DNA of 64,000 nt from Sabellastarte sp. h YS-2021 (lineage: Eukaryota > Annelida > Polychaeta > Sabellida > Sabellidae): assembly GCA_964017235.1 (NCBI GenBank), contig OZ024935.1:34761596-34825595 (forward strand), written 5' to 3'. Each line of letters begins with the position of its first letter. Position 1 is the first letter of the stretch. Shown in pieces: positions 10,001-45,600 of this stretch. The notes under the pieces were generated by a model. The model worked only from the letters and a program-made list of their open reading frames with translations. It did not search any database and was not told the origin of the DNA. The translations under genes and the position numbers were made by a program.

Positions 10001-13000
10001 TTTTACAGAATTGTCAAGATCAAGCCCTTGTCCTTCGATGTGGGAGTGGTCCAGGGGTCGACCAAGTACCTATTTCCTTCCAGAAAGCTTTGCATCCTGA
10101 GTGTTACTGGCATTGCGATGGAAACACCTAATCTCTGGGTGCCCTAAGGAATGTCCTTGCTTGTAACAAAAATTGCAAAAATGTTTGTAAGTCCCATAAT
10201 GTCCTTCACTGGAACATGATCCCTCATTAAAATATCTGCAGATCCTAATTTTTGGGGCCAAGGAGTTAACAGATTGGGTATTGTGCATGACGAGCTGGGA
10301 GTTGCTGATCCTATTCAATGACCACTGCATACTATCTGCCCAACTAAGTCTGCCCTCCTCAATATCAGTCATGGAAACCGCCCATGCTGACTTCACGACT
10401 GGCCACGGTAGAGAGACGGCATCACGCATAGCTGCCGCCATCTGGATCAGCATGTTCTTGGATTAGCTATGATCTTCCACTAAAAGGATATTCGCAATCT
10501 GGCCTGAAGCCCATTGGGCCAGAGTAAGGTCATCGTAAGATGGTTTTTTAAGATGCGATGCTGATACTAATCCCTCATTAGGCCATCTAAAGCTGGGACC
10601 TACGGTTGTGGTTTCAGTAGTATTATACCGCCCAGACTTCTTCCTGTTGATATTCAGCTTACCTTGGAGGGCTTCTTTGTCTGCCTTGTAGTCGTAAGAC
10701 GCTAACAGTTGAGATACGGCTGTGGAGATACTAGGTATTGATCTGAGGACCTCTGCTTTAGGCACTACCACATTCCTACCATCTGAAGCTCCAATGAATT
10801 GAGCTGGTACCGTGCCTAAACCGTGAGCTTCTGCCCCACCCAAATTCGGCCTGTGAAGTGATGACTGCCTGTTGACTGTGATCTGGTGGTCAACCACACC
10901 CTTCTGATGGTTCGCTGAAGAAGGTGTGGGTCAGGTGATAGTGGTAGAACTGACACTACCAGTCCTTTCGACTCTGTCTATTCGCTTTGACAGTTCCCGA
11001 TTAGCCGCATCAAGCTTATTCAACATTTCAATTATTGTCTGCCCTGTAGATGCCGACATGAAGTTCTGGCTTGTAGAAGGAACAGTGCTTACAGGAATCT
11101 GTTCCTGAACCTGGAGGTAGGACCCATCATTAACAGATACAGAAGACTTATTCTTACTAGGCTTCTTTGGTGAAGTTCTAGCCTTATCTGAAGCTCGTGT
11201 CTTCCTTTTCTGTTGAGAGACAGGTGACTTCTTGTGTGTAGATGGCATTATAAAAACACTAAAACTTGACAAAATAAAATGATGATAAAAGTAAAGTTTA
11301 TTTTTTTGAAAATTCTTTGAACACTTGCTTTCCCACTGACAACTAACTTCAATATGGCTACGTTTGTCAACAAAGCAATTTCTTTGAACCCCTAACAATG
11401 TGTGATTGGATGGCTACAGAACAAAATAATTAAATAAAAGGACCTAAAAGTTTAAGGTGTGAAACTGAAGTAGCAGGCCCCTACCAGGCCGTGCTACCCA
11501 CAGCTGCAGTGTGTGTGCAGAGATGGGTTCATGCCATGACATAGCAACCAAATCTGGGGTCAAATAGTCAATTTCGGTGGGTTTTGTGTTTTGGCTTATA
11601 TCATTTGTGTATCTATCAATGGATTAATAGTTGAAATTTGTATTTTTTGTTGCATTTACCCTTCAAAGAAGTAGTCCTTAGTACCCAGGAGGGTCCAATA
11701 TTTGCCTGAAATCGCTCTATTCCTTACAGTTTTTGAGATAAACAACGTTTTCTATTTCCAACAGATGGCGACGGAAATTGGAAAAATTTTCAATTTTTCA
11801 AAGGCTATAAGGGAGTGGCCCTTAGTACCCAGTACTGTCCAAAATTGCATGAAATCACTAGAAATCTCAAACAGTCATCAACAAGTAGGTGAACAAAATA
11901 TTCACAAAAAGTGTAAATTCTATGGAATTGAAGTAACAAGTGATTTAGTCATTGGCAAAATGTCAAAGTAGCTATTACTGAGCTAGCTATGGAGCTACAG
12001 CTCTAAAAATTTACCATGACACAGATCATCAAAAAGTAGGTAAACAATATATTTCACAAAAAAACCCCGTTAATTCAATAGTATTAAAGTTACAAGTGAT
12101 TTACTCAGAGGCAAAATGTCAAAGTACATATTACAGAATTAACTATGGAACTACCGCTCCGTAAATTGGAAACAAAGTGGGTGAACATAAATCACCATTG
12201 GCACCAAAATCATAATTAAGTAATTTAATACTATACTCTGGACTGAGCATTCCAGTAGCCATACACACATTTCACCACAGAGGAGATAAAAAACAATCAT
12301 ATACTTTGCTTTGTACAGTTCGGAAGTGTTCAAAATCTTGTTAAGACACACAATCCACCTTTAATTTTATAGAATTTCAGCTTTCTGGGTATTTTTTATA
12401 TGTCTGTGTGAGGTCTGGATCCATATTCATAAGCATTCTTATTCTTAAACTGAGAATTTTCTTAAAATGCAGGCGTTTCGTGGGAAAAATTCTCTGAATA
12501 AGAAAATTCTTAAGAATAGGACTGGGTAGTGCAATTCTTTACAAATAAAACCTTTATCCTGCTCAACAAGTAAAGTACTAATGCTATCATTTTTTCTGCT
12601 TAGCAATTGCATCCAATTTGTTAATAACACTTAAAATTCCAATCCTAAGTCTAATAGTTATTTTACAGTGCTTAATCTCTACCTATTGACAGACTCTAAG
12701 ACACATAATGCCAGAAATCAGAGACAGTAATCGTTAGACATTGCAATGGGTTGGCACAATGGAGAAAAACTGAAACAGGACCAAAAGGAATGAATATAAA
12801 AACGCTTATTCCTTGAATTTTTTCTTATTCTAATATTTTTTCTTGGAAATGGTTGATTGTGAATATGGGCTCAGGTCTGTGGAAGCAATGGGGCTGCCTC
12901 ATTTTGTCAGCCATCGGGCAATAACAAGTGGCATGTAATCCTGTCCCTCACTGATTTATACCTATAAAAGTGCTTGTTTATTTCATTTTATTGTGTCCTG

Positions 13001-16000: not shown

Positions 16001-19000
16001 CATTTGCATGTTTATGTATGGTGTGACTCACAGACAAAAATAAGGAAATGTAGAGAATTGTGATTAGCTGATTCTGGACAATTTGAAATAAACATCACCT
16101 TGTTCTGTATTTTTATTTACCACTGTATTACTGATATGTATTACATTACTTCAGCAAAGGAATACAGTAAATACTTTCCCATTTGGAGGTATACAAATTT
16201 AAAGTGACACATAATATTACAATTTCAAATACATTGTCAACATATGACCGTTAATATACTTATAATTTCCTCATTAGCAAAATGTGAAAGTAGCTATTAC
16301 TCAGCTAGCTATGGAGCTACAACCTTGAAAATATGCCAGGACACTGAACATGAAAAAGTAGGTGAACAACATATTTAATCAAAACACTATAACTGTTACA
16401 CAGCTAACAGTTACAAAGAAAAATACCATCCATCTAGGTTACTGAATGTTGAATATACAAAATAGCTATAACTCACTTACCTTTGAGGTAGACCTCTAAA
16501 ACAGGTACCATATTTTAGGTACAGAGAAATTAGCTGAACAATGTATTTTGCCAAGATGCTGTAAATGCTGTCGTACTGAAGTAATATGTCATCTACTCAA
16601 AGTAGCTACTTACCCCATAACACACTTAACTATTGACTTAAATTTACAAAAGAAACACTAACATGGTGGACATAAGAAACTAAGTCAATATAATTTACCC
16701 CAGCCCAAAAAACTCCAAATTTAATAGTGTTGAAATTTGGGGGTGGGGTACAAAAGTGCCACTCATTTCATTGCTCTAGTTCCTTGTGAAAATACTTCTT
16801 GTTTGCCCTCATTTGTTTTTATTGGGTGACCTTTGACATTTCTTTAAAAATTCTCCCGCTTAAACCCATAACCCTTCACTCCTTAGAGGGAAGTCAAACA
16901 GAGAGGACGCCATTTTAATCATATGTAGCAGTAAAAAAAATTTTTGTTTTGCTCTTGTGTTTGTATGTTTTTTTTTATTAAGTTCTTTTATGCTTTCCTG
17001 CTTTCTTCTTTTTAGTAATATTAGTGTTGGCATCCTGCTGTGTTTACAGGACCGTATGCTATTGTTAATGTGTTAAATACTATGCGTTAATACAATTGTT
17101 TATACGTTAAATGCTAGAGTAATGTGGATTCTTTAACATTTTAATATTAATTCTATTTCTCAGCTGTCGATACTGTGTTACTTTGTGCTGCATACATTCA
17201 GGTTTTGTGGTGTGGCATTCTGTGCGTACATATTAACATATTATACGTTTGTTTAAAGCAATTTACAGTAACGCTTAGTATTCATGCTTTATTTCACTGT
17301 TTAATAATAGTGGTTTTCTAGTGAATCTCGTTAAAATTTAAGCATATGGTTTGTACATTGTTTTAATTTACCATGCCGAAAGTATTTCACTGCTCTAAGT
17401 GTGGGGGCCAACATAAGCGGCCTGTGGGTATCAAATGCGAAGTAATGGGGGGAAAGTACTTCAAGTACTTTGGCCAGTACTTCTGATCAAAACATGGATG
17501 AAAATACAAGTTCTCAAATACTAAATGCCCTTAATGCTGTGAGTTATAGGTTGGCTGCAATCGAGCAGAGGATTAACAGAACCGAGGAACAGCTGCAGGG
17601 ACAAGTACAGTCTGATAACCAAACAGGCAGCTCCCTGGAGACAAGCACCACACCTTCTCAGGAGGCGGATGAGGACAGTGACGTTGGAGACGATGACGTC
17701 ATTCCCACCGTCAAATATTTAAAAACATCTAAGCACATACAGGAGGCAGTTGACCTCAGATTACAAGAATTGGCCAAGATCAATGAACAAGGCAAGTTCA
17801 GATCACAAAGGGGTAACAATGATCAAGTTATTGTTAAACAACAAACTCCCTGGCCCCAAAATCATGTATTGGCTGGTACGTCTAAGGCAAGAATCACGTA
17901 TGATAGTCTTTCAATTTTCCAATGGATGCGAGGTTTCTTGTCCATCATTAGAGAGGAAAAAAGTACAAAAGTCAAAAATGTATGCTTGATTATATGTCTG
18001 ACCTTATGGAAGATGCTCACGATTTTGGTTGGGCATCAGCAAAAGGGGCTTATGCCCTAATCCTCTGTAGATTGGAGGAAGGCAAGGTAGATTGGCTCAG
18101 TGCTGATAACTGGACCGTCTTAGAAGGGCACACGCTCAGAAAGTACTCACCAATAACACAACTAATGCTCACAGCTCAAAAAGTAAAAATGAGACCCAAG
18201 GTATTCTATGTAAGTACTTCCAGTCTAGTAAATGTAGCCACAAATCTGATCATACGACAAATGGTCAACTTTACAAACATCAATGTTCTCATTGCCATAC
18301 TTTGGGCAAAAAATTTTCACATGCACTTAAAGATTGTCGAAACAAGCGTCAACAAGACGCAAAAAATGAATAAGGCACTGCAGTTATGCAGTGCCTAAGA
18401 AATCTAACAGTAATGACAAAGTTACAGCTATATCTGCACCAGTAAGTCCTAGGTTCAAATCTAGAACAATTTACAATTCAAGTAAAGAAATTGGTGAAAG
18501 CAGCAATTGGAAAGCTGATTGTTACAAATACAAAAATCTTACGTATGCTGAAGTACTTAGCTTAGGTAAGCATAATGACAGTGTATCTGCGGATCATAGT
18601 AGTCACTTCCTTAGTAGAAAACATGGCAAAAACCACTTACTTAGCCCACCTGATAAGGCTATGAGTACTCACAAAGTACCTAGAGACAAAAAGAATTGTG
18701 TTAAACATCGATCTAACATGGCTCGTCCCAAGGTAAGTGTAAACCCTAGATTATAATAGGGAGGAAGTATTAAGAAGCCAAGAAACTAATCATTCATCAG
18801 CTATAGATTACCCTGATGACATTAAGGCCTACTTGGATCAAGAAATGCAACATGATGCGATTTTAGGTGCTTTTGATACTACGCCTATCAAAGAAATGCA
18901 TATTTCTCCCATGATGACTAGGGAAAAACCAAATGCGCCACACCATAGGGTCATTATAGACCTTAGCTTTCCCCAGGGTCAGTCTGTTAATACCTATATT

Positions 19001-21651
19001 AATATACTCTATTAATACCATATACCTACAGATCAGTACTTAGGCACCCCTTTTGTCCTTAAGTTACCTACAGTGGATACAATTACTGATCAGATCAAGG
19101 TCTTAGGCAAAGGCTGTAAGCTTTATAAAGTTGACATAAGCCGGGCTTTTCGTCATGTTAAGCTAGATCCTTTGGAATATGATCTTTTAGGTTTGCGTCA
19201 CGACCGTTATTACGTAGATACCTGCCTGCCATTCAGGTATCAGAATGGGAGTGCGTTATTTCAACGTTTAAGCGATGCAGTGCATCACATTATGCATCAA
19301 CGTCAGTATGACGTCATAAATTACATAGATGATATCCTTGGAGTGGACCTCCCTAGTAGGATTGACGCCTCGTTTGACGCCTTACGTCAACTGTTACGTG
19401 AGTTAGGTTTCCAGATTTCAAAGAAAAAATTGGAACCTCCAAGTACTTGTCTCAATTGCTTAGGAATCCTTATAAACACTGAAACCTTTACAATGTCTAT
19501 ACCACCTGTAAAGCTTAAAGAAATATCGGATATTTGCCAAGAGTGGAGCTGCAAATCTTTCTGTACTAAGCGTCAGCTTCAGTCGTTATTAGGTAGCTTG
19601 CTTTACATTAGCAAATGCGTAAAGGCTTCCAGATTTTTCTTGAATAGGTTGTTAGACGTCCTTAGGTCTATGGAAAATAAACACACAGTCCCACAGAGTA
19701 TGGAAGCTAAAAGAGACATTAACTGGTTCTTAAAATTTATTCCATTGTACAATGGTGTTACCTTTTTTGATCAAAAGCCCATTGACCACTCTATTGAGTT
19801 GGATGCCAGTCTCCAGGGTATGGGGGCCAGATGGGGTTCCCAAGTTTATGCTTTGAGAATACCACTGGGATATATGAACTTGCAAATAGTCCATCTTGAA
19901 ATGCTTAACATCTTGGCTGCTCTTAGAATATGGCAGAATTCATGGTAGCTATAGCTTGTAATTAACCTGGCTGTGGTCTAGGTCCTAGATTCAGGAAAAA
20001 CCACAGATCTAACACTAGCTGCTATTGCACGTAACATACAATTGCAAATTGCTACTATGAATGTTAATTTTAAAGTTACTCATATCCCAGGTAAAATTAA
20101 CGTTATTGCAGATCTCCTCTCAAGATGGGCTAGTAGTTTCAACCCCCAGGCAACCTTACATCGCTTTTGCCCTCACACGTGGGCTCAAATTAATGACACA
20201 CATATAGACATAGATTGGTCCATATAATGTAACTGTTTTCTGTAGGCTTTCATCCAACCATAGCCAAATTCCTGCATCTTGGCCTTCAGAAGACTCATTT
20301 GGCCTTCAGACCTGCAACTGACAGGAACTACACTAGCATGTTCAGGTTATTTTTAGCCTTCACAGTCTTCATGAAGATAAGTATTTTCAAACTCTCTCCC
20401 ATGCTCATAATAGCATATCTACAGTTCTTGGAAACTAATAACACATCGGCCATGGCCAATCACATATCTGCCATAAAAGCAAAGCTATCCTTATTTGGCA
20501 TTTCCGTTCATATCTTTGATGATAAAAGAATAAAATATTTTCAGAAAGCCATGTTGATGCACAGACCTTTCAAGGTTCAGATTAAGAAAATTATTGACAT
20601 TGATACCCTACAGTTGATTGTTAGGACCTGTGATTCCATGTACATGGGTCAGGTATTTAAGGCAGTGTACACACTAGCATATATTTCTTTCCTCAGATTA
20701 TCCAATCTAGTCCCCCATAAATCTGCTGATTTTTCATCACTTTATCATCTCACAAGAGCTGATATCATTTTTGCTCACCCTGGCATTCAAGTTATTATAA
20801 AATGGTCGAAAACCATGCAAACAAGAAATATTGTTAAAATTCTAAAAATCCCTCACTTGGGTGCCAACCCCATTTGTCCTGTCAGAGCACTTAAAAATTT
20901 GCTGGCCATTACCCCTGGTTCCAATAACCATCCACTTTTTCAATATAAGACATCTAAGGGTTGGAGGCCATTAACAGATTCCCAAGTCAGGCATCATTTT
21001 CACCTCATCCTTAAGAGGCTTAACCTCTCAGATGCCAAACTCACCTTCCACGCCTTCCGCCGTTCAGGTGCCACCTACGCCTTTAATGCGAATGTGGATT
21101 TGCAACATATCCAGAGTCATGGCACCTGGACGTCGGAATGCGTTTGGAAATATATAAACCCTTGACCATGATGCCTCTGCCCAGGTTGCTTCCACTTTCA
21201 AGAAACACCTCTACATCCCTACTACTTACTAATTGGGGTTTGGGGACTTTTTTCCTACTCACATGTTTTCCTTTAAATGGTTTCTTGTAGTGGTTCAACC
21301 CTAAATTATAAAATTTCCAGGTTGTAAATACCTTATATTAACTTTAAAACAATAACTTCGTTCAACTATCACATTAGGGCCACCTTAAATTCAGGCAAAC
21401 CCTCATTGTGACCTTATGCTCACAGGTTTAATCTGATGTTAATCATTGGGGTGACCTTAGCTTCACCCTCTTTCCATTTAACATTACTTTCACTTGCTTT
21501 AAGGGTGACCCTAGGGTCACCACTTTGCGAATACTAAACTTGGGTTCCTCACTTAAGGTGGCCTTATCTATATGTAAATAAATTTTAAAAAGTTCAAGTA
21601 AAAATTCAAATGTGTTCTCAATTGTAAATAAACAATAGTTTATATACATAC

Positions 21652-21694
<43 letters not shown>

Positions 21695-24600
21695 AATTGT
21701 AAATAAAAAGTATTTTATCCCACCCCTGTTGTTTAATATTGTTCAGAACCAAAGGCAATGTGGGGGTGGGGTACAAAAGTGCCACACATTTCATTGCTCT
21801 AGTTCCTTGTGAAAAACACTTCTTGTTTGCCCTCATTTGTTTTTATTGGGTGACCTTTGACATTTCATTAAAAATTCTCCCGCTTAAACCCATAACCCTT
21901 CACTCTTTAGAGGGAAGTCAAACAGAGAGGACACCATTTTAATCATATCATGTAGCAGTAAAAAAAATTTTGTCCCTCTACCCACCCTAACAACCATAAC
22001 ATGTTACTAATTCTTGTTTTAATTTCCAGGTGTCTGACAGTGACTGCTCGCTTATGGTCACCATCAAGTAACTGCTCCACTCCTGGGTCCTTGTGTGCTT
22101 GGGTTTAAAAAAATACATATAGTTCCTGGACACCAGTGAGTGGAGTCTTAGATGGGCTTCTAGGGCCATAGAGTAGCGCTGTGGGCCAGGTCACCAGGAA
22201 ATAACTTAATAACGGCCACCATATGGCATGCATACAACAAGCATCTCACACATCGTCTCCAACATCACTGCTTACACATTGGATCCTCTGCTCACTAGGC
22301 CTGGGCAAAATGTATTCGTATTCATAAGTATTCGAATACATTTTTTAAAGTATTCATGTTAGTATTTGAATACTTTTGTGAAAAATGCAAAGTATTCGTA
22401 TTCGTATTCAAATACATTTCAAAAGTATTCGTATTCATGAATACTTTTATGAATACATTTAATATTTTTCACTTTTTGTTGATTTTTTCACCCTGTACTG
22501 CCAAGTTTTAGATATAAATATGAAATTTGGCTGTCTATCATTATATGCCTAAGAAAACTAACAAGACATATTTAATAAATACTTTTAGTCAGTAAATATT
22601 ATATAACATAATAATGACAGTGTCATGTTAGAACAAAATAGTGAGGATTATAGCTTTTTCTCTTACATCTCATAAATGCAATCAGTCTGTGTTTAACTTT
22701 TATATTGATAAATGACATCATGTGTGTTTTAATCCACATTGGTTTTCATAATGTAGTGTTATGTTATTATAAAATTCATGAAATTATAAACACCAAGCTA
22801 CCTAACTTAAAATGACAACTGTGTTTGCCTTTGCTACAATAGGGGATTAACTTGTATGTGTTTCAATACCAGTGTCATTGGTCATATATGGGTAATTCTT
22901 AGGCAAACTTATGTGACACCTATTGTGACAGTCTTGTAGCAGTAATCCCATCATAAAGATTTCCAAAACAATGGCTATCTCAGTTAAATACAAGATGTTT
23001 AGGGCACTATGATGTCCTTTTCAAAAAAAAAAAAATGGAAAAAAAACCTCTTTTGAGTAGCTCATGTTTATTAGACTGAATATTCAGATCTTGGAGCAAA
23101 AATTAATTCTTGTCAAATATGATGTGAATCTGAACCATCATTTACTGAATTGTGCTTTCATGTTTGTATATTTTATTCAGAAAGGTAAAATTATTAAAAT
23201 TTATTAAAAATGATTGTGTGAATTGGGGTTTAGTTAAAATGTATTCATAAATGTATTCGTAAATGTATTCGAATACTTTTCAAAAAGTATTCGTATTCGT
23301 ATTCGAATACTTTTGAAACTGATGTATTCGTATTCATATTCGTACTCATGGAAATGAAAAGTATTCGTATTCGAATACTTTTGAAAGTATTCGTCCCAGG
23401 CCTGCTGCTCGCTGGGTTCACTCCAGCCTTAGCCTAGGCAGTGCCTTAGGCCCCTCGGTTCTGCTTCCTCTGCTGCTCAACTGCAAGTCCTCGACCAAGG
23501 TCCAGGCGGCCACCTGAGTCATCAACTTCCTGCACAGCCTAAATTGTTCTTTAGGGGGACGTTGCTTGTGACAACAAAATTGTATTTTGATCTAAGTGCA
23601 TAAAGTATTCTGAGATGGTAAATCCTTGTGCTGATTGTTGGGTCATATAGGTACAAGTCAGTAATTTCTTTTATGTTTATAAGTCATGAAAAGTTGTGCT
23701 ATGCTTTAGAAAAGTTAGGAGTTTTATTTGTGAATGTGGTGCTAATGTTATAATAACTTGACTTCCCTCTTTTAGAGTCATTCAACGTCTGTTCTTGGTT
23801 GTAGAATCATTCACTTGACATGTGTCAAGGTCATTTACGAAAATACCAAGTGAATGGTCGACACTTTGGTGTTTGTACTCAGCCTGTAACAGGAAGTTGT
23901 TGTATTACTGTACATAATCACATTTCAACGGTGGTATATGACCACTGCTACATTGTAATGAAATGGTTACTTAATGTTTTAATTCATTGATTATGCCTCC
24001 ACCTAGATAAATGGCTTGTGTGATATGCTGTTGAGGTCGTATGAAGGTCAACCACATGTATGGTGGTAATGTTGTTTTGTATCTTCTATGTGTATCATAG
24101 GTTACCTAAAGTATTTTAGCAATTTTATTTATACATGGATATTGGCTAATGTACTTGTGTAATAATTTGAATGCCAACCTCACCGATAGTGAGAGTGCTA
24201 GTATGGCTTATTTAAAGTATTTTAGTAAAATTTTATATGTGAATATTGGGTAACTATTAACTTTCCATTTATGCAGTAATGTATCATTGTTTTAAGTAAC
24301 CGCTTACCATTAGGGTAAGATGGAAGTAAAGTTTATTCTAGTAAAACATGTAATATTTTATTTGTGTTTAGTTTTCTAGTCAACCAAGGTAATGGGTAAC
24401 ATCTGTACTCAGATAAATGTTTAACATAATTCTTATTTTAAATCAAAATATTCTAGGTCAACAAAGTAATCTACTTCATTAGCCATGTCATATTAGTGCA
24501 TAGCCAGGTGCTTAGATGTAGGCACCAAACGCGGTGTATTAAGCAATATTTTGAAATATTTAGTCTTTTACCATTATCACCCTTGTAACTAATAAAATTG

Positions 24601-27600
24601 TAATCTATAACAAATATTTCCTCCCATTTCTACTTGGGCTGGATGTAAAGTACTCATGTAATGTAGTCTAATCAAAAGGTTCCATTTAGGGTACAAAATG
24701 TACTCTTATGTTATATTTAAACTCTATTTTCACACTGTCTTCTATCAAGTGCTTAGTTAATTTTATATACTCCATGAACTTTCTTATCAATTGGGTATTG
24801 TAACAGCAAATTTATTTATATAGAATTATTTTACTACAGAGTACCTTGACTGTAATGTTATAGCAGTTGTCAAGGCACTTGTGCCTTAACTTTTGTTAAT
24901 TTGTCAAGATTATTCCTATCTACTTTTAATTGCAAGTAATGATAATTGTGAAAGGTCGTACTGGTTCAAAAGTAAACTTGCTTTGCTTTAGGTTCACTTT
25001 AAGTACAATCATCACTTAGTCTCCCTTATGGGACTTTTTCCTACTCACATGTTTTCCTTAAAATGGTTTCTTGTCGTGGTTCAACCCTAAATTATAAAAT
25101 TTCCAGGTTGTAAATACCCTATATTATATTAACTTTAAAACAATAACTTCATTCAACTACCTCATTAGGGCCACCTTAAATTCAGGCAAACCCTCATTGT
25201 GACCTTATGCTCACAGGTTTAATCTGATGTTAATCATTGGGATGACCTTAGCTTCACCCTCTTTCCATTTAACATTACTTTCACTTGCTTTAAGGGTGAC
25301 CCTAGGGTCACCACTTTGCGAATACTAAACTTGGGTTCCTCACTTAAGGAGGCCTTATCTATATGTAAATAAATTTTAAAAAGTTCAAGTAAAAATTCAA
25401 ATGTGTTCTCAATTGTAAATAAACAATAGTTTATATACATACATATATATATATATACAATAATTGTAAATAAAAAGTATTTTATCCCACCCCTGTTGTT
25501 TAATTTTGTCCAGAACCAAAGGCAATGACAAGTAATTTACTCATTAGAAAAATGTTGAAGTAGCTATTACTGAGTTAGTTATGGAGCTACAGCTCTAAAA
25601 ATGAGCCATTACATAGACATAAAATTTGCCACTGAGGGCTACACCTACATCCCCATGTTTGGGTTAACTAAAAATGTTTTATCATTATCAAATCTGTGAT
25701 TATGGAGCGGTATGGTGGTTGAATTTAAGGTCACCGAGATCTAAATAAGATTCTGATGATCAGGCTCATTTAATAGAATACTACAATCTTGCTTTAATTT
25801 AGCAACCAGAATGTGTAATTAATACCTGCTTTTAGTAAGGTCTTAATATCAACAAACTTATATTTTAATAATATTCATAAGCTAATTAATCTAGTATATA
25901 GCCACATAAAACATTTCATATCTCAATGAGGTCAATAAAACTCTCACCTGTTGACCAAAAGTAAAATACATCACCAAGTATTAATATCAAGAGTGTTAAA
26001 TAACAAAAAAAGTAAACTTGCGAAACCTAAAGTTGTAAAATGTAAAGTGTTGCAAACCCTAAGCATAGCCGACCTGTAGAGTAAAAAATGTGGTGGTCAA
26101 AATGTGGGGTACACAAACTGTAAAGGATGATTCTGAACCACTATTTCACTAGTCTTAAAGGTGTGAATTGCAGCAATTTTATTGTTCATAAAAGATATTG
26201 AAAGAACATTAAATATATGAATGATGAGTTACATGTAAACATTTGACAGAATTACACTCTGAAAGGCCTCCCATCAATGTTTTCTTAGCTCCATGTAGTA
26301 AACCTTACATTTTCACTGTTCAATTTTTGCTGGTAGTCATGCATGTATAGTATCCAAAAGCTATGGTGCTCCTTGCTCTTATGGTCATCTCAAATTAATT
26401 TCTAAATTAACCTGTGCAATAGTGAGTTCCTCCCTCCTGTTCAGATAATTGGGTTTAAGGGCTCGGTTGTAAGGGGGTAAGGCAAGGGGCTCTACATCTT
26501 TTGTTATTTGTGGTTATTTTAATTGTAACGGTGTGTGTATTATTATATCAGGCTTGCATACACATTATCTGTGATCAATTTTTGTTCTTTTAGTTGTAAT
26601 TGGTATTACATTTCCTCATGTAAGTAATGATCAGTGTTAAACTATGGCATGATAGTGAATGGACTCAAGAACACTTTAAATCATCATGCTTGCATTATAT
26701 GACTTGATGTTGTATTAAAGTTGTCATCGGTTGAATACATGAGTAGTATTAGTTGTATTTACTCATTATTTTATAATCATTTTATTATATGTATTTTATA
26801 AAGCATACATATGTTGTGTATAATAAACTAAATTTCTGGTCTGTCCTTCTATGGTCTTGGGGGTACTGATCCCCTTTTATAATTAAGTATTTTTTTGCAG
26901 TCAGACTGTGTCTTTCAGTCACAATTAGTTCCAGCAATCAATTTAATATTTGCATATCATGGAAACTTGGGAAAAATATAAAATATAAACTATACAAATA
27001 TCTCAGAATACACATATATGGATAATCACGAACAGTCACTGCAGTTAAATACTTGCATATGTTAGCAACACATACATGCTGCTTTGAATGAATCATTTTT
27101 CCAGTGAAGAGCAATCATATGTCGCCCTGTTTTTGAAAGGTGTGCTTAGTCCCTCACCCCTCTAACAAAATGGGTTCATATTAAAAATGTCTTAGTTAAT
27201 GAGCTCAGATACTCTTTGTACACTAATGACCACCTATGCTACCCCTATATGTAACTTCAAGCTTCACCCACATGCCTGTTGAATGATTTCATTGGGAATT
27301 CATAAATGGGTCAGTGAACTTCCCTGGGTAGGCATAGTGACCTTAAAACCTCTTGTAGACATTATTCAAGAAGCGGTGTTTTACCCTGGTTTTGAAATTT
27401 ATTGAACACACCATATATTTACATATTTGGAAGAGACAATATTATCCAGGTTGTTAAAGGCATTACTATCGAATAGGCATTGCATGCTATTTTACAAATT
27501 AATTAGCTATATGGCATCTTAGATTCGGAATTTTTTTTTTTTTTTTTGGGGGGGGGGGGGGGGGGGGCAGAACTGATTTTTAGGGAAAGCATTAGAAATC

Positions 27601-30600: not shown

Positions 30601-33600
30601 TTGCCACTTCAGTATGTAAGTCTAGTAAGCATTTTGGCCTCAGCGATGCTTATGATGCTCCAAAAATTTGGAATGATTTGCCAGATGGTGTATGCTCGGC
30701 TATTTCTCTCCACTCATTTAAAAAGAAGCTCGAAATCTATCTCTTTGCAAAAGCATACCCACTATATTTCTGCTTTTACCAGTCTCTCTCTGTGGGGCTG
30801 ACCCCTGCTACGTCTCAGGATAATTATTATAGATTTCTGCTTTTTCTGTATGGTGAGTCTAGTGTCTGTCTTTAGATGCTGATTAAGTGCTATAAAAACG
30901 CTATAAGAATTAGAGTTAGAATCAAAAAGTACCTGAACAACATATTTCACAACTTAACTTTATCATTGACAAAATGTCAAAGTAGCTATTATTCAGTTAG
31001 CCAGTTAGTAGCTACAGCTCTAAAAATGTGCATCTACATTGAACATCAAAATGTACGAAAACAACATATTTAATCAAAATACTGTAACTATTGCACAGCT
31101 AACAGTTACTAAGAAAAAACATTCATTTATGTTACTAAACTTTAAACACATAAAATAGCTATAACTCATTTAGCTACTGAGGTAAACATCTAAAACAGGT
31201 GCCGTCTTTAAGGTATAGAGAAAGTAGCTGAACAACATATTTTTTTTCAATATGCTGCAAATACAGTCATTTTGAAGTTGTATGCAATTTACTTAAAGTA
31301 CTACTAGTGCCTTTGCTCACTTAGTTACTGACCTAGATTTGCAAAACAGCGACAAATAGAGATAAGAAACTGAACTAATATTTTATAAGCATAAGACCCG
31401 ACAGACCTCCACTTTAGAGGAAACTGCACGATACATGCTCACACAAGAGGCATTTAATAATCTCCCGCCCGGCAGGCCAGAGGGAGATAACAACTGGAAC
31501 CATGTTTGTTAACTTGGGGGCAGTAGAAATTCTGGTGAGTCAACTTGATGGAACAGCCTTCTGTTTTTTATTTCTTGAAGAGAAACATGTTATTAATATG
31601 ATGTTTAGTAGGTTTAACATATATAAGTTTAATATAATAGCATATTTTTTTTCTTTTTGAAAAGTATGCCTTCATGGTACAAAGCTAGCAATCGTTCTAC
31701 AATTCTGCATGAAATCTGTCATGGGAACAAATACTGTACCTTTAACTCTATCTCAACAGCATCATGTGGTATTTTGAAGATATAGTTGGCTTTTCCATGG
31801 TCATCGGTTGATATTCTGGTTGGATTTTTCAGCTGACCTTCTCTAATTAGTGGGAACAAGGTTTGACTGGAAAGATTCCTTGCTTTTCCCATCACATTCA
31901 AATTGGCCCCACTTTTTATGGCTCCATTTGCGTACAAGGTTTTGATCTGCAGTTGAAAATATAGATTTTATGTTCAGTTGAAGTCTTCAGTTTCCAAATC
32001 TGACAAGTAATCTTTTCTCTTTAGTACAAAAAAAATCGGGTCCAGGTTTTTCTCTAAATCTAAGGTAGGAAAATATGTTTTCTTTGTTTTGTTATTTGAT
32101 ATCTATACTAACTAGACTTATGCATTGGAGAACCGATGCAAATTTGTATCCACCGGAAAGACAATTCACCAAAATCAGTGAACCATCGTTTGACCTTGAA
32201 GGAGGGGCCAAAGGTCAAATCTGACACAAGAAGATTCCTAGCCCAAGATTTCGTATGAGTTGGTTTACCATCCCAAACTTCTAGGACCATTAATAAGCGA
32301 GTTATAAGCACTTTTAAGTTTGGCTATTCCCCTTTGGCCTTGAAGGAGGGGCCCAAGGTCAAATCCGACCACACCAAAATATTCCCAGCTCATGATTTCC
32401 TATAGGTTGGCTTACCATCCCAAACCTCTACGACCAATAATAAGCGAGTTATAAGCACTTTTAACTTTGCCTATCCTCATTTGACCTTGAAGGAGGGGCC
32501 CAATGTCAAATCCGACCACACCAGAAGATTCCCAGCCAATGATTTCCTATATGTTGGTTTACCATCCCAAACCTCTAGGACCAATAATAAGTGAGATATA
32601 AGCAATTTTAAGTTTGGCCATCCTCGTTTGACATTGAACGAGGGGTCAAAGGTAACATCCGAACACACAAAAAGATTCCCACCCCATGAGTTTCTATAGG
32701 TTGGTTTACCATCCCAAACCTCTAGGACCAATAATAAGCGAGATATAAGCAATTTTAAGTTGGCCATCCTCATTTGACATTGAACGAGGGGCCCAAGGTC
32801 AAATCTGAACACACAAAACGATTCCCACCCCATGAGTTTCTATAGGTTGGTTTACCATCCCAAACCTCTATGAACAATAATAAGCGAGTTATAAGCAGTT
32901 TTAAGTTTCGCTATCCTCATTTGACCTTGAAGGAGGGGTCCAAGGTCAAATCTGTCAACATCAGAAGATTTGCAGCACATGATTTCCTATAGGTTGGTTT
33001 CACATTGCAAACCTCTAGGACCAATAATAGGGGAGATATAGGCACTTTTAAAGTCCGCTATGTGGGTTACTTCGGTACTCGGTGGATGACCTTGAATTAA
33101 GAGCTTCAAGGTCAAATGTATGCAAGGTTGTACAGGACATGTATATCTGTTATACATATCACCTATAAAGAGATTCAACCTTCTACCTATGAGAAACAGC
33201 CAGTAGAAAAATGTAGATTATTTTCAAAGAAATGCCCCCGGCGGGCATCTTTTTTTTTCAGAATGAGGCTATTTTCGTTCCCAGAGACGCTTACCCCCCA
33301 ATGAAGATATCCTGCAAATTTGGTGAACCTAGCTGGTGTACTTTTTCTCTTGGAGCGTTAACTCCGAAAATCTCTCTACACTCAGCGGCGGTGTAGCGAA
33401 GGCTAAACCAAAGTATCCACTGGATGCTTTTGATGGATACAATTAATGCAAATGTCCATCCATCCTTCCATCCATCTGAAACCACTAGCCAATCAAATCC
33501 TAGCATTTCTGAGGTGCCTTTCAAAATGAGCTAATTTAAAACAGTGAAGTATGGCTTTAAGAAATAGCCATATGAAATTAATTTCCTAATAGTTTTTTTT

Positions 33601-36600
33601 CAAATATAATCCAAATTATTAATATTTGGAGGAGGTCATAAAAATTGGCATTTCAGTCAGTTATTATTTTGAAATACAGAACCATTTGTTACGTTGAGCC
33701 ATACAGTAATTTTATCTGAAACCTTAGCAGTAGTCAGTCACGGCCTTTTTAAAATATGAAAAACAACAAAAGAATTCAGGTTAGCATAATATTACCACGA
33801 TTAGTACATAACTAAATCATTTTTTTTAATACATTCAAATATTTAGCTAACAGAATGCTAATGCTGAGGGCCTCTTCCAAATGACCTTGGCAGTTAAACG
33901 GAACACAATACATTAACTATGACATCCTTGTGGGGGTGTTTCACTGGAGCCAACCCTATAACTGACTCTATGACTGGTTGGAAAAGTTGGGAGTCTGGAC
34001 CAAAATCCAGAAAAAAAGCGTGCAAAAATGTTGGGTCGGTTTCATCTCCCCAACAGGACATAGTACATCCTGGCTTGTCTGGATCAAGATCCCAACCTGA
34101 CTTGGGGTCGGGATGATTTTCTCCCTGACAAGACAGGAAACTACCAGGACAAGCTGTAAACTCCTAACAGACAAGCCGTATCAAGCCTCGACAGGCCGTA
34201 CTGACAAACCGACAGGACTGGAGCATTTTCCCAACCCACCCCGACTGGACTGATTAATTTCTAGAGTCGGCCTGGAAGCCACACTATATAAACCCCCTTT
34301 GGGCTGCTGTAAATCATCAACTGCAAAGATGCCAGCTACACATCAGAGACACTTTATACATAAGCTTAGGGTACTTTTTTTTATTGATTTTAATATTTTG
34401 GTTTTCATCATGATTTGCAGACAGAAAAGGACACATGTGAACGAAGGATCAGCACCTGCCATACAGCCAGCACCACAGTTACAGCCAGCCCCTAAGAGAA
34501 CATGAAAGCCACCAAACCCCTTGGTCATGCCCATGTCAATTTTTTGAGAAAGTTATCTCAATTTTTTGAGAAAGCTATCTCAATTTCTTGAAATATTTTG
34601 TCAATTTTTCGAGATATTATCTCAATTTCTTGAGGTAGTAAGTCAATTTTTCGAGATACTAAGTCAATTTCTTGAGATAGTTATCTCAATTTTTTGAGAT
34701 ATTAAGTCAATTTTTCGAGATACTAAGTCAATTTTTTTAGATAGTTATCTCAATTTCTTGAGATATTATGTCAATTTTTCGAGATATTATCTCAATTTCT
34801 TTAGATAGTAAGTCAATTTTTAGAGATACTAAGTCAATTTCTTGAGATAGTTATCTCAAGTTCTTGAGAATTTAAGTCATTTTTTGAGATACTACATCAA
34901 TTTCTTGAGATAGTTATCTCAATTTCTTCAGATATTAAGTCAATTTTTCGAGATATTATGTCAATTTCTTGAGATATTAAGTCAATTTTTTGAGATATTA
35001 TGTCAATTTCTTGAGATAGTTATCTCAATTTCTTGAGATGTTATGTCAATTTTTTGAGATATTATGTCAATTTTTCGAGATACTAAGTCAATTTCTTGAG
35101 ATAGTTATCTCAATTTCTTGTCAATTTCTTGAGATATTAAGTCAATTTCTTGAGACATTAAGTCAATTTTTCGAGATAGTTATCTCAATTTCTTGAGCTA
35201 CTATGTCAATTTTTTAAATATTATGTCATTTTTTTTTAAATCTTCGAGATACTAAGTCAATTTCTTGAGATAGTTATCTCAATTTCTTGAGATATTAAGT
35301 CAATTTTTGAGATATTAATTCAATGTTTTTAGATATTATGTCAATTTTTCGAGATTTCGAGATAGTTATCTCAATTTCTTGGGATATTATGTCAATTTGT
35401 TTTAGATATTAAGTCAATTTATCGAGATATTATGTCAATTTTTTGAAATACTGAGTCAATTGACATTGGAAATGTAATATAACTTCAAAGACCTATGACA
35501 ATGGTGATGATGTCACAATGCAGTGTTGCTTTATATTATACATTATTATCAACCATGATAGTTGTATGTTTAACTTGATTATGTCATTGAAATAATTGAG
35601 GCTTGTTTTAGTATTTTGAAATTAAACTTGTAAAAAACAAAATTAAATAGGTTTATTATTATTAAATCTAAGAAGGTAAACAAAGGAGAATAATATATAA
35701 AGGCTTTTAAAAAACAGACAATGCATTTTTATTTATACTTTGACATGAAAATTTGAGTTGAAAAGCACAGAAATTTAATTTTCAAAGGATAATCAAAACA
35801 CAAACAGGAAAAGGACCATTTTCCCTTTTGCCTTTGATATGTGAGAAAAATTATTAGAATGGCCCCTCATTATGTGTTTTGTTTGATTGCATGTCACACA
35901 TCTTTGAAGTACATGTATTATTACAAATGCCAGTTCTTACAAGCACATGGCTCCCACTCTTCCCCCCTCACTGTCCTGTAATTATCTCAAAAAATCGACT
36001 TAGTATCTCATAAACTTGAAATAATTATCTGACAAATTGAGATAATATCTCGAAAAATTGACATAATATCTCTAGAAATTGAGATAACTATCTCAAAAAA
36101 TGACATCATATCTTGAAAAACTGACTTAATATCTCAAAAAATTGAGATAACTATCTCAAAAAATTAACATAATATCTCGAAAAATTGACTTAATAATTGA
36201 GATACTATCTCACTAAATTGAAAATTTTTTTTTTTTACTTGGCCCTAATACTCTTACGTAGCATACGCCACTGCATTAAGAAGTCAGGCACTAATTTCAG
36301 GAAGACCTTAGAAGTTGGCAACTGGCAAAAATACTGAGACACCTAGCAATAGGAGAGACCTACACCTCTTTGCAGTATCACTGACTGGTTGGCCGAACCA
36401 CCATCTGTAAATTTGTCCCTGAAGTCTGCTGAGCTATCCTTGCTGAATTTCAGGACCAATATTTGCACTGCTCTCCCTAAAGAGTGGAGGAAAAGTTCAA
36501 AACCAGATAGAATGCCCCCCACCTCCCATGCTGTAGAGGCAATAGATGGGAAGCATATTGCCATGAAGAAGCCAAAGAAATCTGGGAGTGTCTACTACAA

Positions 36601-39600: not shown

Positions 39601-42600
39601 ATTTTCAGAAATTTTGAATAATGTGATATTCACAAAAGTAAGTGGCGGTAAACGAACAATTCACATTAACTTTGTGTCAGTAAAAAAAACAGACAAAAAA
39701 CAGAAAACAGCTAAAAAATATTAAATAATATCCTAAACCTCACTATTTTAGGCTAAAGGTGTTCTCACACATCTCTCCATTTTTACAGAATCTTCACTGG
39801 CTGAATGAAATGCAAATACTCCCCACTTTTTATCCCTAATAAAATCAAGAAATCGTACGCAGGGAAAATTATTGATAAATATCCTCCACTAAAGAAAAAC
39901 GTTGGAAGGCAGAGTTTTACTCATGCAGCGTCCTCTGAAAGTAAGACTCCCCCAGACAATGAGTGACCAACAGCCTAAAGTTGGTTAGAAAACAACTCAA
40001 AGCAGACAGCTTTAGATTAGCATTGTCCCATCATAACCATCCCCTGGTCAATAGTCTCTTTTCTGGCGACCACTTTGGCCTAATTATTAACACTATTTTT
40101 TGACACTTGCACCCTAGGATGGTTACATCAATTTGGCGGTTTATAAATGTTTGAAGTATTGCCATTAACTCCACCAAAAAGGCATTATTATTATTATGAC
40201 TGTATTTTTTCTGTTAGCAGGATTACTCAAATACAAGTGGTTGGAACTTCTAGACGATTCAGAAGATAGGTCTCGGACCAACTTTGATCCAATTAAATTT
40301 GGAGAGTGATCTGGATCAACGTCTGGATAAAAAAATCCACATTTTCCAATTACATATCCATACAATATTTGAATGAAAATTGGCAACCCATTTTCTGTAC
40401 ACTCTGTGGACATATAGAGAAACTGAAACTTTTACATGTGAGTTTAGGGTCACCTTAAAATAGGGCATACCTTTAGAACCAGTTATATCTACAGGCAAAA
40501 TATGAATTGAATCTGCCAAGCAACATCCACATGCCCAACTTGAGTTTAATTTGTCAAGCCAGTTTTGAGATACTGCCCTGACACAAAGTGTTATGCTGAT
40601 GACATTGATAATGACGATGACAGAAGACAAATTGATCCCTAGATAGATGCTCGTTACACAATAAAACTAAAAGAATCTTTGTGGTCTATATTTTACAATT
40701 TTGTTAATTTAGAATAAAAATAGATAAAACCTTATACCATAGGACAAGGGTGGTGTATTTTGTCTTTTTCGAGTGAGACCATTTACAACTGAGGTTCCTG
40801 TTTCTTGTTGATTACGTTGGCAACTGAATGATGAACAAATTACTAACTCTGAGTGTGAATAAAGTACTTTTGTGTCTGGCTCAGATCAATGACATATTTC
40901 TTCGTTGAAATTGTGGTTTTTGTGCTAATCTCAGTATTCCTGATGCCAGATATGATGTCTGTTACTGTTGCTTCAATGTAAAGTCTCTGGCCCAACAAAT
41001 CTGTTAGAACAATACAAAGAAAAGTAAAAGACATTAAACAGTTCAAATTAAAACAAAAAAACATACACAAAGCATAGAATAAAATTGCAGTTGTCTAATA
41101 TATCATATTTATTTTACTATTTGTTAACTCCCTTGTTATCTAACGTTTTCATTTAGGTGAATATTTAAAAACTTTAACGAAGGCTACAACATACCATCAA
41201 AAGTATTTTCTCTTGAGAGGAAGCTCAAGTCAACAGGGATCTTTGTTCTAGGCGGGCTTCTGTGAGGTCTGTTACTGGCTGTCATATTTAGCTGTCAGAG
41301 CAACAGAATTTCAGCGAAATATGAATGTAATTCAACGACTGAAATTTGCTACGGCACAAACTGGATAGTTTTGGTTGTAATTATAGTTTTATCACCTAAA
41401 CAGCATCGGGAATTGCTTTAAGTGATGAATTATGTGAATTCAGGGACTAACAATAATGGTGTTTACAATATTTATGTCACTTTATGACTATATTTGTACC
41501 ATTTTTGATATTTTATCATTTTCTTCGATTTTTAACTGAACTAAAAGTGTCAAAATTTCTGCACACAACATTTAGAAAACAAGATCCCTGCAGTGTTATG
41601 ATCTCCCGCCGGGGATTAAACACTAAATGATATGAAGCTATAGCTCTGAAAATTTGAGATAAACAACATTTTCCATTTCCAACAATTTCCAAGATGGTGG
41701 CAGAATCTCAAAAATTCTCAATTTTTCAGAAGCCATAAGGGAGTGGTCCTTAGTACCCAGTTCCACCCAATATTTGCAAATTGCTCTATCTCTTACAGTC
41801 ATCAAAACTAGGTGAACAAAATATTTCACAAAATATTTTAAATTCAATAGTATTGAAGTTACAAGTGATTTACTCATTGGCAAAATGTGAAAGTAGCTAT
41901 TACTCTACTATGGAGATACAGCGTTGAAAATTTGCCATCACAAGGAACATCAAAACGTAGGTGAACAACATATTTCACAAGAATCTCTAAATTCAATAGT
42001 ACTGCAGTTACATATTATTTACCCATTGGCAAAATGTCAAAGAAGCTATTACTCAGTTAGCTATGGAACAGCAGCTCTGAAAATTGGCCATGACACAGAA
42101 CATCAGAAAGTTCATAAAAAATTTTAATTCAGTAGTATTAAAGTTATAAGTGAATTACTCATTGCAAAGATGTCGAAGTAGCCGTTACCCACCTATGGAA
42201 CTAAAGCTCCAACAAAATTCACCATGACACAGAACATCAAAAAGTAAGTAAACAACACACTTCACTAAAAACCTAATAATTCAATGGTACTGAAGTATTC
42301 AAATGGTTAAGTCATGGGCAAAATTTCAAAGTAAATATTTCTCAGATAACTGTGGAGCTACAGCTCTGATACCTGGCCATGACACAGAACATCAAAAAGT
42401 AGGTGAACAACATATTTCATTAAAATCCTCTTAATTCAATAGGATTGAAGTTACACGTAATTTATTCATTGGCAAAATGTCAAAGTAGCTATTACTCAGT
42501 TATGGAGCTACAGCTCTAAAATTAGACACGACACAGAGCATCAAAAAGTAAGTGAACAACATATTTCACTAAAAATATATCACTTTAAAAGTATTGAAGT

Positions 42601-45600
42601 TAGAAGAGATTTAGTTATGGGTAAAATGTCAAGTTAGCTGTTACTCAGGTATGAATCTACAGTTCCAGATATTTGCCATGACACAAAACATCGAAACCTA
42701 TGTGCACAATATATACTAAAAACCTCATAATTTAATAGTATTGATTTTACAAATGATGTACTCATTGGCAAAAATGTCAAAGTAACTATTACTCAGTAAG
42801 GTATGGACAACTGCTCTAAAGTATGCCATGACACAGATCATCAACAAGTTGCTGAACAACATATTTCACAAAAAATACTCTGATTTCAATAGTATTTAAG
42901 TTACAAGTCATTTACTCGTTGGCAAAAATGTTTAAGTTAGTTATGGAGAGCTACAGCTCTAAAAAGTTGCCATGACACAAAACATCAAAAAGTAGATGAA
43001 CAATATATTTCATAAAAATCTCCACATTCAATACAATTGAAGTTACAAGTGATTTACTCATGGACAAAAAGTCAAAGTAGCTATTATTCAGTTAGCTATG
43101 AAGCTAGAGCTCTAAAAATACACCAGGACACTAAACATTGAAATGTAGGTGAGCAACATATTTAACCAAAACACTGTCACTATTACACAGCTAACAGTTT
43201 CAAAGATAAAAGTCACCCATATATCTTACTCAACTTTTAATACATGAAATACCTGCAACTGACTTTGAGCTGTTGAAATACACCTTTAAAACAGCTACTA
43301 CCTTTAAGGTGCAGAGAAAGTAGCTGAACAACATATTTTGGCAAAATGCTGTAAACACAGTAATTTTGAAGTTATATGAAATTTACTTAAAGTAGCTACT
43401 AGCCCCAGTACTCCTTTAGCTATTGACCTACATCTGCAGAAGTAACAAAAAATGGAGAAACTGAACTAACATTATTTAAGCACAAGACCCCACAGCCCTC
43501 CACCATATAGAAAACTGCGGGATACACGCACGCACCACACTCTCCCATGCAACACACACTCACACACAAGAGGCATTTTATAGTCTCTCACCCGGCTACC
43601 AGCTGGAGATGAAAACATGACAAATCAACAAAATGTGTCTTACTTTATGTAATGTATGCTGAGAAGAGAAGGTGTATTAAATATCTCTTACTTTTTTAAT
43701 AGTTGTACAGTACTTGCAGAGAAGTAGAACATTACAGAACTGAGTATTTACAGTGTTTGTGGAGAAATACATAAGGGAACTGAATATGTCTTACTTCTGA
43801 CAAAGTATTTCTAGAGAAGTATGTGATAACATCCTCAGCATCCAGCAATCCTATTCTCACAACTGCTGTTCCGTTCACGGCCCTAAAATCTATGTTTCCT
43901 TTTGATGAATCAGCTGAATCAGAAGGTTGAGATTCGCCAAACAGGTACCTGCAAAGTAACATTTAATTTAGTCTAGTGATAATGATAATTTAAATTGTCA
44001 GCATAACTCTACAGTGACATAGAATGCATTTTATTTCAAAACCAGTTGGCATATTATTGTGGTTACACTCTTTCTGGTATGATCAGGGACTATTTGTTAA
44101 GGTAATACAATTTATTAATCAATGCAGAGATAAACGTCTTTAAGTTATTAAATTCTGTAACTACAGTCCCAGAGGTGAGTGCTTAATTTCCATGCTATCA
44201 GATTCCAAGAGACAATATCTAAAAACAAACGGAAACTGTTATTGGTCAGTTGTCATAAAAAGGTTCTAATGAGTGAATTCGTCAGTGTTTGGTACAGAAT
44301 GAACAAGATGGGAAGGGTATAACTGTTATTTTTTTAAAAAATCAGCCGTAGAAGCTAAATACTACATGGAGCAAGTCAATCCACACCATAGGCAAAACTA
44401 TAATTAAAATAAATCTTTGACTGGATTTTGCAAATGAATTTACATAGTTTGTTAATGAGAAATCATAGTAAGGCCTAATGAAATATGTGATTTACGTGCT
44501 GATTCTTGTGAATCAAGAGAATCACAAGATGTCTCCCAAGCTGATTGCAGGACCAGGAAGCCAAAACATCTGGATGATTATCATACGTAAGCTTATTTAA
44601 GTGAATGCTTAGATCATTCAGATAATAGGTAAGAGACTACTAATACCACCGATGGCTGGCTCTGTATAAATGCAATTTATTTGTTTCTTTTTACCGATAT
44701 CACAGAAAGACCAGTTCAGGAGAGGGAGGCAAAGGGGTGGTTCCTATTGTGGTTATGATTTGAGGAGCTCAACTTCTTAAGAAAGCCATGGGACTAGCCT
44801 TTGTTATGATTATCCCTGTGATTATCAGGAAATGAGACACGACAGTTTTCTATAAGTTTCACTTCTTGAAAGTTTGTCAAGGCAGTGCCATGAGCACCAG
44901 GACAGACCAACAGAAGGACATTCATGTCATGTAATTCAAGTTTTGGGAGTGGAACAAGACAAGGAGGAATCTGAATCAGTGGTTACTGCATGTATACAGA
45001 TCTACCTGATAGTGAGGTCTAACACAATCAGATATTTGCCACACAAATCAACAGAATAAAGTGGCACCAGTGAATCAGGATATACAGTTGAACAGGTGTA
45101 GCTGAGATATCAGGTCTCGAATGTGTCATGCTGCTCAAGAGATCCCTGCAGCTTCAGGTGCACCGCAATCTTCTCCCAGTACTGCCACTGGTTCCTCAGC
45201 TAATATAAGTGTTTATCCCAGACAACAAAGTGCCACGTTGAGGTTAGACATTGGTTGGGATAATAATGCAACAGCCAACACTAACCAGGAAACTGAAAAG
45301 AATGGTGTGAAAGAAAGGACGCCGGGACAACCACAAAAACAACAGACATCAAAAGAATGAATGGACTGTTGTGTCTCCTAGACAGTGAAGTACTTGTACT
45401 CCGAGGAATGGCTTCATGAGTTGGGGAAGAAGAACTGGATGCTATGAAAGAACAAGACAAAAGGGAGAGCCGCCATGCAGTCATTTAGAAAGAGAATATC
45501 AGTCTCTGGAGAGTCAGTCGGAGTATGAAAAGGATTCCCTGTTTCTGGTCTGCCTTGGAGACATAAAAAGTTGAGACATAGATAACCTGGAAGAGTATAT

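What the first reader, a model, noticed from the sequence alone, without database searches (positions are those of the whole stretch)
16738..25527. DIRS-like element with exact borders, caught inside an older tandem-core repeat
The flanks at 16737 and 25528 join to restore the pearl-like repeat, and an unfilled paralogous site is present in the same window (56260-56300). This gives a clean empty/filled comparison: split direct repeats A1...B1A2...B2, no target duplication, B1/A2 junction seamless. It directly supports integration of a circular intermediate by the tyrosine recombinase.
Basis: partly seen in the sequence, partly recalled or inferred. Interest (0 to 1): 0.75.

Follow-up and report, generated by a model that had tools for sequence, protein, structure and literature searches.

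The report
Jumping gene with exact insertion borders
This is a decayed copy of a known type of retrotransposon that inserted cleanly into an older repeat, and comparing it with dozens of sister copies in the same genome puts a limit on how such elements can insert themselves.

Summary
An 8,790-bp retrotransposon copy lies at 16738-25527, with split direct repeats A1-X-B1A2-Y-B2, a reverse transcriptase fragment and a tyrosine recombinase. Sister copies share its ends, TGGGGG...GGCAATG. The joined flanks align across the junction with 34 repeat units, 33 without a gap beside it: no target duplication, no loss.

By structure it is an MT-less, Ngaro-like element of the DIRS order; tree placement was not possible. 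The copy is broken, and its Y region holds a later 1.1-kb insert. It is a new member of a known kind.

'Directly supports a circular intermediate' goes too far: a clean insertion shows the product, not the intermediate. Sister copies say more. The three bases left of the element resemble the end of B (T in the middle in 34 of 47; ATG in 10 of 47, about 2% expected), as expected of recombination over a short shared core. A closed circle would hold two identical BA junctions, so permuted copies (A-Y-BA-X-B) should be common. I found 22 complete canonical copies, 18 A-X-B, 3 A-Y-B and no permuted copy. Either only the newly made junction is used, or the substrate is not such a circle.

The parts
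16738..16955 (+). A1, left terminal half-repeat; starts TGGGGGTGGGG
   Evidence: start shared with outer A ends of other copies
17373..18756 (+). gag-like region, broken over several frames; begins MPKVFHCSKC (read)
   Evidence: counterpart frames in the relative L185; no Pfam match above cut-off
19073..19948 (+). reverse transcriptase fragment of pol
   Evidence: Pfam PF00078 E 3.2e-10; counterpart lies in one 723-residue frame in L185
20299..21165 (+). tyrosine recombinase (YR)
   Evidence: Pfam PF00589 E 2.7e-7; 137 matches listed in the genome, a lower bound
21243..21760 (+). B1, internal half-repeat
21761..21979 (+). A2, internal half-repeat, directly joined to B1
21980..25029 (+). Y, stretch between A2 and B2 with no ORF of 100 aa or more, lengthened by a nested insert
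22300..23404 (.). younger 1.1-kb insert in Y with inverted ends CCTGGG...CCCAGG, flanked by a 12-bp imperfect repeat (22288-22299 / 23405-23416); absent from the related copy on C1
25030..25527 (+). B2, right terminal half-repeat; ends GGCAATG
16588..16737 (+). left flank: older dispersed tandem-core repeat, ends TTGAAATT
25528..25677 (+). right flank: continuation of the same repeat, starts ACAAGTAATTTACTC
41829..41942 (+). closer unfilled paralogue, reads GAAGTT|ACAAGTGATTTACTCATTGG

Best explanation
A decayed copy of a tyrosine-recombinase retrotransposon with split direct repeats (A1-X-B1A2-Y-B2). Proposed cycle: the RNA is copied into DNA, and the internal B1A2 junction serves as the template that restores and joins the outer ends as a B2A1 junction. 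The element's recombinase exchanges that junction (GGCAATG|TGGGGG) with a genomic site that resembles the last bases of B (NTN, best ATG). The target keeps its own three bases on the left and the element's ATG ends the right, so nothing is duplicated or lost. Shown here: domains, repeats, exact ends, clean insertion, the target resemblance, and that complete copies were found in one phase only. Inferred: the RNA step, the templating role of B1A2, the recombinase as the catalyst, and that only the newly made junction is used. A-X-B and A-Y-B copies are most simply later deletions between B1 and B2 or between A1 and A2.
For: RT and YR domains. Shared ends. 34 alignments to the unfilled site, 33 ungapped beside the junction. 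Left-flank bias: T at -2 in 34 of 47 (p 3.7e-8), ATG in 10 of 47 against 2.0% background (p 3.3e-8). The bias was first noticed; without the 7 flanks already seen there it is T in 27 of 40 (p 8e-6) and ATG in 9 of 40 (p 1e-7), and among the 37 non-ATG flanks T is at -2 in 24 (p 7e-5). 22 complete copies in the order X then Y (17 with YR between A and B, 3 by length alone, 1 with the YR match in two pieces, 1 re-read by sequence), no permuted one. The 18 to 3 excess of A-X-B over A-Y-B (one-sided p 7e-4) fits longer, closer B repeats (about 500 bp, 2.4 kb apart) recombining more than A repeats (about 220 bp, 5.6 kb apart). One XXY and one XYY tandem are the expected unequal-exchange partners.
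Against: No RNA, cDNA or circle was observed. The left-flank bias is partial (37 of 47 are not ATG; 13 of 47 lack T at -2). A-X-B copies are not clearly older than complete ones (median terminal branch 0.39% against 0.32%, p 0.26, 14 of 18 and 14 of 22 copies), so the deletion account is not proven. The searches favour young copies with standard ends: A starts within 3 mismatches of one 30-mer, B ends exactly as one 17-base pattern that fixes GGCAATG, so copies with diverged or altered ends, permuted or not, would be missed.
Confidence: 0.8

Rival explanations
1. A closed double-stranded circle carrying both B1A2 and B2A1 integrates through either junction, which are identical over the whole of A and B.
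For: The accepted model for DIRS1-like elements uses a circular intermediate (PMC3266345, passages), and DIRS-1 circles are reported as verified in Dictyostelium (PMC5633606, passages). Clean junctions here.
Against: It predicts equal numbers of canonical and permuted copies. For 0 of 22 the chance is 2.4e-7 and the upper 95% bound of the permuted share is 13%.
Confidence: 0.08
2. A-X-B and A-Y-B copies are separate insertions made from short RNAs or from small circles, not later deletions.
For: A-X-B copies are scattered through the tree among complete copies, are not measurably older (p 0.26), and some are very young (0.08% terminal branch). A and B each occur twice, so start and stop signals within them could give A-X-B and A-Y-B RNAs (inference).
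Against: Resolution of a circle would yield X and Y circles equally, but 18 against 3 were found. A-X-B RNA lacks the internal BA template.
Confidence: 0.33
3. The filled site is an assembly artefact or an ectopic recombination product rather than an insertion.
For: The region is rich in repeats.
Against: Same ends in many loci with other flanks; among the 47 left and 62 right flanks fetched, no two share the same 50 bases next to the element.
Confidence: 0.02

Closest known systems
Ngaro-like retrotransposons
   Different: A2 and B2 are separated by more than 1.5 kb of non-coding Y, whereas Cafeteria Ngaro is written A1-[ORFs]-B1A2B2 (PMC8547959, passages); no SGNH-hydrolase ORF as described for amphibian Ngaro (PMC9210276, passages)
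PAT elements (Pat1, echinoderm form)
   Same: Split direct repeats A1-B1-A2-B2 (PMC4157794, passages)
   Different: PAT belongs to the group that encodes a methyltransferase domain; none was found here in pol or YR
DIRS1-like elements
   Same: YR integration without target duplication; short junction core matching the target, element ends commonly NTT (PMC3266345, passages)
   Different: DIRS1-like elements have inverted terminal repeats, internal complementary regions and a methyltransferase; here the repeats are direct and the target core only resembles the junction
Solo AB repeats of Cafeteria Ngaro
   Same: Shortened forms attributed to recombination between repeats (PMC8547959, passage)
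   Different: Here the shortened forms keep X or Y (A-X-B, A-Y-B)

Membership tests
DIRS order (YR retrotransposons) | reverse transcriptase and tyrosine recombinase in one element | tested here: met
   PF00078 and PF00589 in the window copy; same in the relative L185/L203, where PF00589 scores 26.9 bits, just under its 27.1 cut-off
DIRS order (YR retrotransposons) | insertion without target duplication | tested here: met
   34 alignments over the junction, 33 ungapped beside it
Ngaro | split direct repeats, internal pair downstream of YR | tested here: met
Ngaro | no methyltransferase domain | tested here: met
   no such Pfam match in the relative's 723-residue pol frame or YR or in the window's five frames tested; PF05869 has no match in the genome, but that family may not detect a DIRS-type domain
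Ngaro | grouping with Ngaro in RT or YR trees | not testable with these tools
Ngaro | SGNH hydrolase ORF (described for amphibian members) | tested here: not met
   longest stop-to-stop frame in a complete Y unit of one young copy is 85 residues
PAT | methyltransferase domain | tested here: not met
   with the same caveat on detection
DIRS1-like | inverted terminal repeats with internal complementary regions | tested here: not met
   the terminal repeats are direct; of 33 inverted pairs (25 shown) none joins the two ends: those shown lie in TA runs, in the nested insert or in scattered AT-rich stretches

The most novel reading that the evidence does not exclude
Split-direct-repeat YR elements do not integrate from a finished circle with two equivalent BA junctions. 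The recombinase acts only on the junction being made, while the identical internal junction is still a template and not double-stranded DNA. Integration would then be coupled to reverse transcription, which keeps the element in phase. In addition, two of four 5'-truncated copies begin at the same G-rich look-alike of the left end (about TTGGGG.TTGGGG), as if the recombinase can use a false end.
Probability: 0.35. Interest if true: 0.65.

Novelty: new member of a known kind. Interest (0 to 1): 0.45.

Why it matters
Circles have been reported for DIRS-1, an inverted-repeat element (PMC5633606, passages); the passages that I saw give no experiment on how split-direct-repeat YR elements integrate. 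A genome with many young copies lets the models be tested by counting. The one-phase rule (22 to 0) is a simple, repeatable constraint that any integration model must meet. The target resemblance extends the 3-bp junction idea of DIRS1-like elements to direct-repeat elements in a looser form.

Tried and rejected
Rfam scan of the window: nothing. PDB sequence search with the relative's YR: nothing. Homologue search with the relative's RT-RH: 756 matches, 120 listed, none named, so no group assignment. Dam family in the genome: no match. Age test of A-X-B against complete copies: inconclusive. The first version (0.51% against 0.32%, p 0.16) wrongly kept four flanking bases on each A-X-B sequence; repeated without them it gives 0.39% against 0.32%, p 0.26 (a first attempt, stopped on a check that also showed B1 to end at 21760, not 21762 as I had used). 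I raised the separate-insertion rival from 0.30 to 0.33 for this. Reading of 'BAB' clusters as permuted forms: rejected. One of 5 has X upstream (L182); the other 4 are cut near the X/B boundary and show neither X nor Y in the stretch fetched upstream. C14:87406049, first thought to be A-Y-B alone, is one of these. One A-YR-B row (C18:83158125) was moved to complete after reading L219. In one complex cluster (C11:27137824-27151023) YR follows Y after 409 bp without a BA junction; I do not count it as permuted. Of the 65 clusters, 43 enter the 22/18/3 counts; the other 22 are 2 tandems, 2 A-X-BA (Y follows by sequence), 5 BAB, 7 lone B, 2 YR-B, 1 YR-BAB, 1 YR-B-B, 1 complex, and the window copy itself (YR only, because its ends differ from the patterns). 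One search was given all 83 A and 100 B places but 48 of the 137 YR rows. Two of the 18 A-X-B copies are internally shortened (C18:48616299, C18:79615397). Literature: searches listed no paper that I could see treating permuted YR-retrotransposon insertions; only listings and passages were seen, the four papers were not opened, and the 2005 and 2015 Poulter reviews were seen only as citations.

Full report
What is there. The window is G000:C11:34761596-34825595 of a 1.79-Gb genome. At 16738-25527 lies an element with the order A1-X-B1A2-Y-B2. X holds a broken gag-like region, a reverse transcriptase fragment (PF00078, 3.2e-10) and a tyrosine recombinase (PF00589, 2.7e-7). In a younger relative pol is one 723-residue open frame with RT and an RNase H match below the curated cut-off, with no methyltransferase match, and in the one complete Y unit read no stop-to-stop frame exceeds 85 residues. 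The window copy is broken: its RT is reduced to a 291-residue frame and gag is split.

Borders and target. The 21 outer A ends read start at the homologous TGGGGG position (a few with substitutions), and 19 of 20 outer B ends end AATG. The joined flanks align over the junction with 16 units in the window and 18 in seven other loci; 33 of 34 show no gap at or beside it. The target is a dispersed tandem-core repeat: TRF finds periods of 149 bp at 42124-43171, 289 bp at 41817-42400 and 156 bp at 11871-12167. Of the 40 scored matches to 16600-16800 (of 258 candidates), one is the window itself, 4 match A only, and 35 are copies of the left flank, of which 30 end between 16732 and 16739.

Sister copies. 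Pattern searches gave 83 A starts and 100 B ends. Together with 48 of the 137 YR matches they form 65 clusters. After one re-reading there are 22 complete copies A-X-BA-Y-B, 18 A-X-B and 3 A-Y-B (Y confirmed by sequence in all three, but in one only over 315 of 601 bases at 73%), one XXY and one XYY tandem, one complex cluster, and partial ones. In most complete copies Y was recognised by length (2.2-2.5 kb, 3.1 kb in one) and by the lack of a YR match, not by sequence. No cluster has A-Y-BA-X-B. In two young copies checked A1 and A2 are identical over 205 bases; in the window copy 196 match and 5 differ, so this copy is older.

Target preference. In 47 left flanks the base at -2 is T in 34, and the last three bases are ATG in 10 against 2.0% expected. 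I first saw the bias in the flanks; 7 of the 47 were among those, and the other 40 still show T in 27 and ATG in 9. Thirteen further, older flanks have T in 12, but they are part of the set in which the bias was noticed. Because the element's B end is AATG, the target resembles the last bases of the junction GGCAATG|TGGGGG. The window copy shows which side keeps what: its left three bases are ATT, and most unfilled paralogues read ATT or GTT there, while the right end is the element's ATG. This is the looser, direct-repeat counterpart of the 3-bp junction described for DIRS1-like elements (PMC3266345, passages). The right flank shows only weak biases, and the invariance of GGCAATG is by construction of the search pattern.

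What this says about the mechanism. A clean insertion is the product expected of recombinase-mediated integration, but it does not show the intermediate. If the substrate were a finished circle, its two BA junctions would be identical over about 220 bp of A and 500 bp of B, and insertion through the internal one would give permuted copies. For 0 of 22 the chance under equal use is 2.4e-7 and the 95% upper bound is 13%. So the recombinase must use the newly formed B2A1 junction nearly always, or the substrate must be another form. I favour coupling to reverse transcription, with B1A2 still engaged as template; this is inference. The count covers copies with standard ends only.

Shortened copies. 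A-X-B outnumbers A-Y-B 18 to 3 (one-sided chance under equal production 7e-4). This fits deletion between the longer and closer B repeats. Ages do not decide it: in a tree of 14 A-X-B and 14 complete copies the two kinds are intermingled, with median terminal branches of 0.39% and 0.32% (p 0.26) (which corrects). Two of four 5'-truncated copies start at a G-rich look-alike of the left end at the X/B boundary (L179, L181), which may be a false end used by the recombinase; two cases do not prove it.

Verdict. The claim of direct support for a circular intermediate should be softened, and the one-phase rule is the more informative result.

Noticed in passing
22300-23404: A 1.1-kb insert with inverted ends CCTGGG...CCCAGG and many TATTCG/CGAATA motifs sits in Y, flanked by a 12-bp imperfect repeat; the related copy on C1 has a single copy of that repeat and no insert. 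Its DNA-transposon nature is a guess from the ends.
   Followed up: partly
L179, L181 (C4:13438016 and C20:27741344, minus strand): Two 5'-truncated copies from different subfamilies begin at the same G-rich sequence (about TTGGGG.TTGGGG) at the X/B1 boundary, resembling the true left end TGGGGGTGGGG.
   Followed up: partly
G000:C11:27137824-27151023: Complex cluster of repeated X and Y modules; the last B is followed directly by sequence that reads like the YR gene (by eye), suggesting a nested insertion into another copy followed by tandem duplication.
   Followed up: no
window 34533-36195: Two arrays of a 21-bp unit (TGTCAATTTCTTGAGATATTA-like) whose consensus units are reverse complements, about 0.5 kb apart; possibly a large imperfect palindrome.
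   Followed up: no
window 32189-33051: Array of about six 147-bp units, 86% matches.
   Followed up: no
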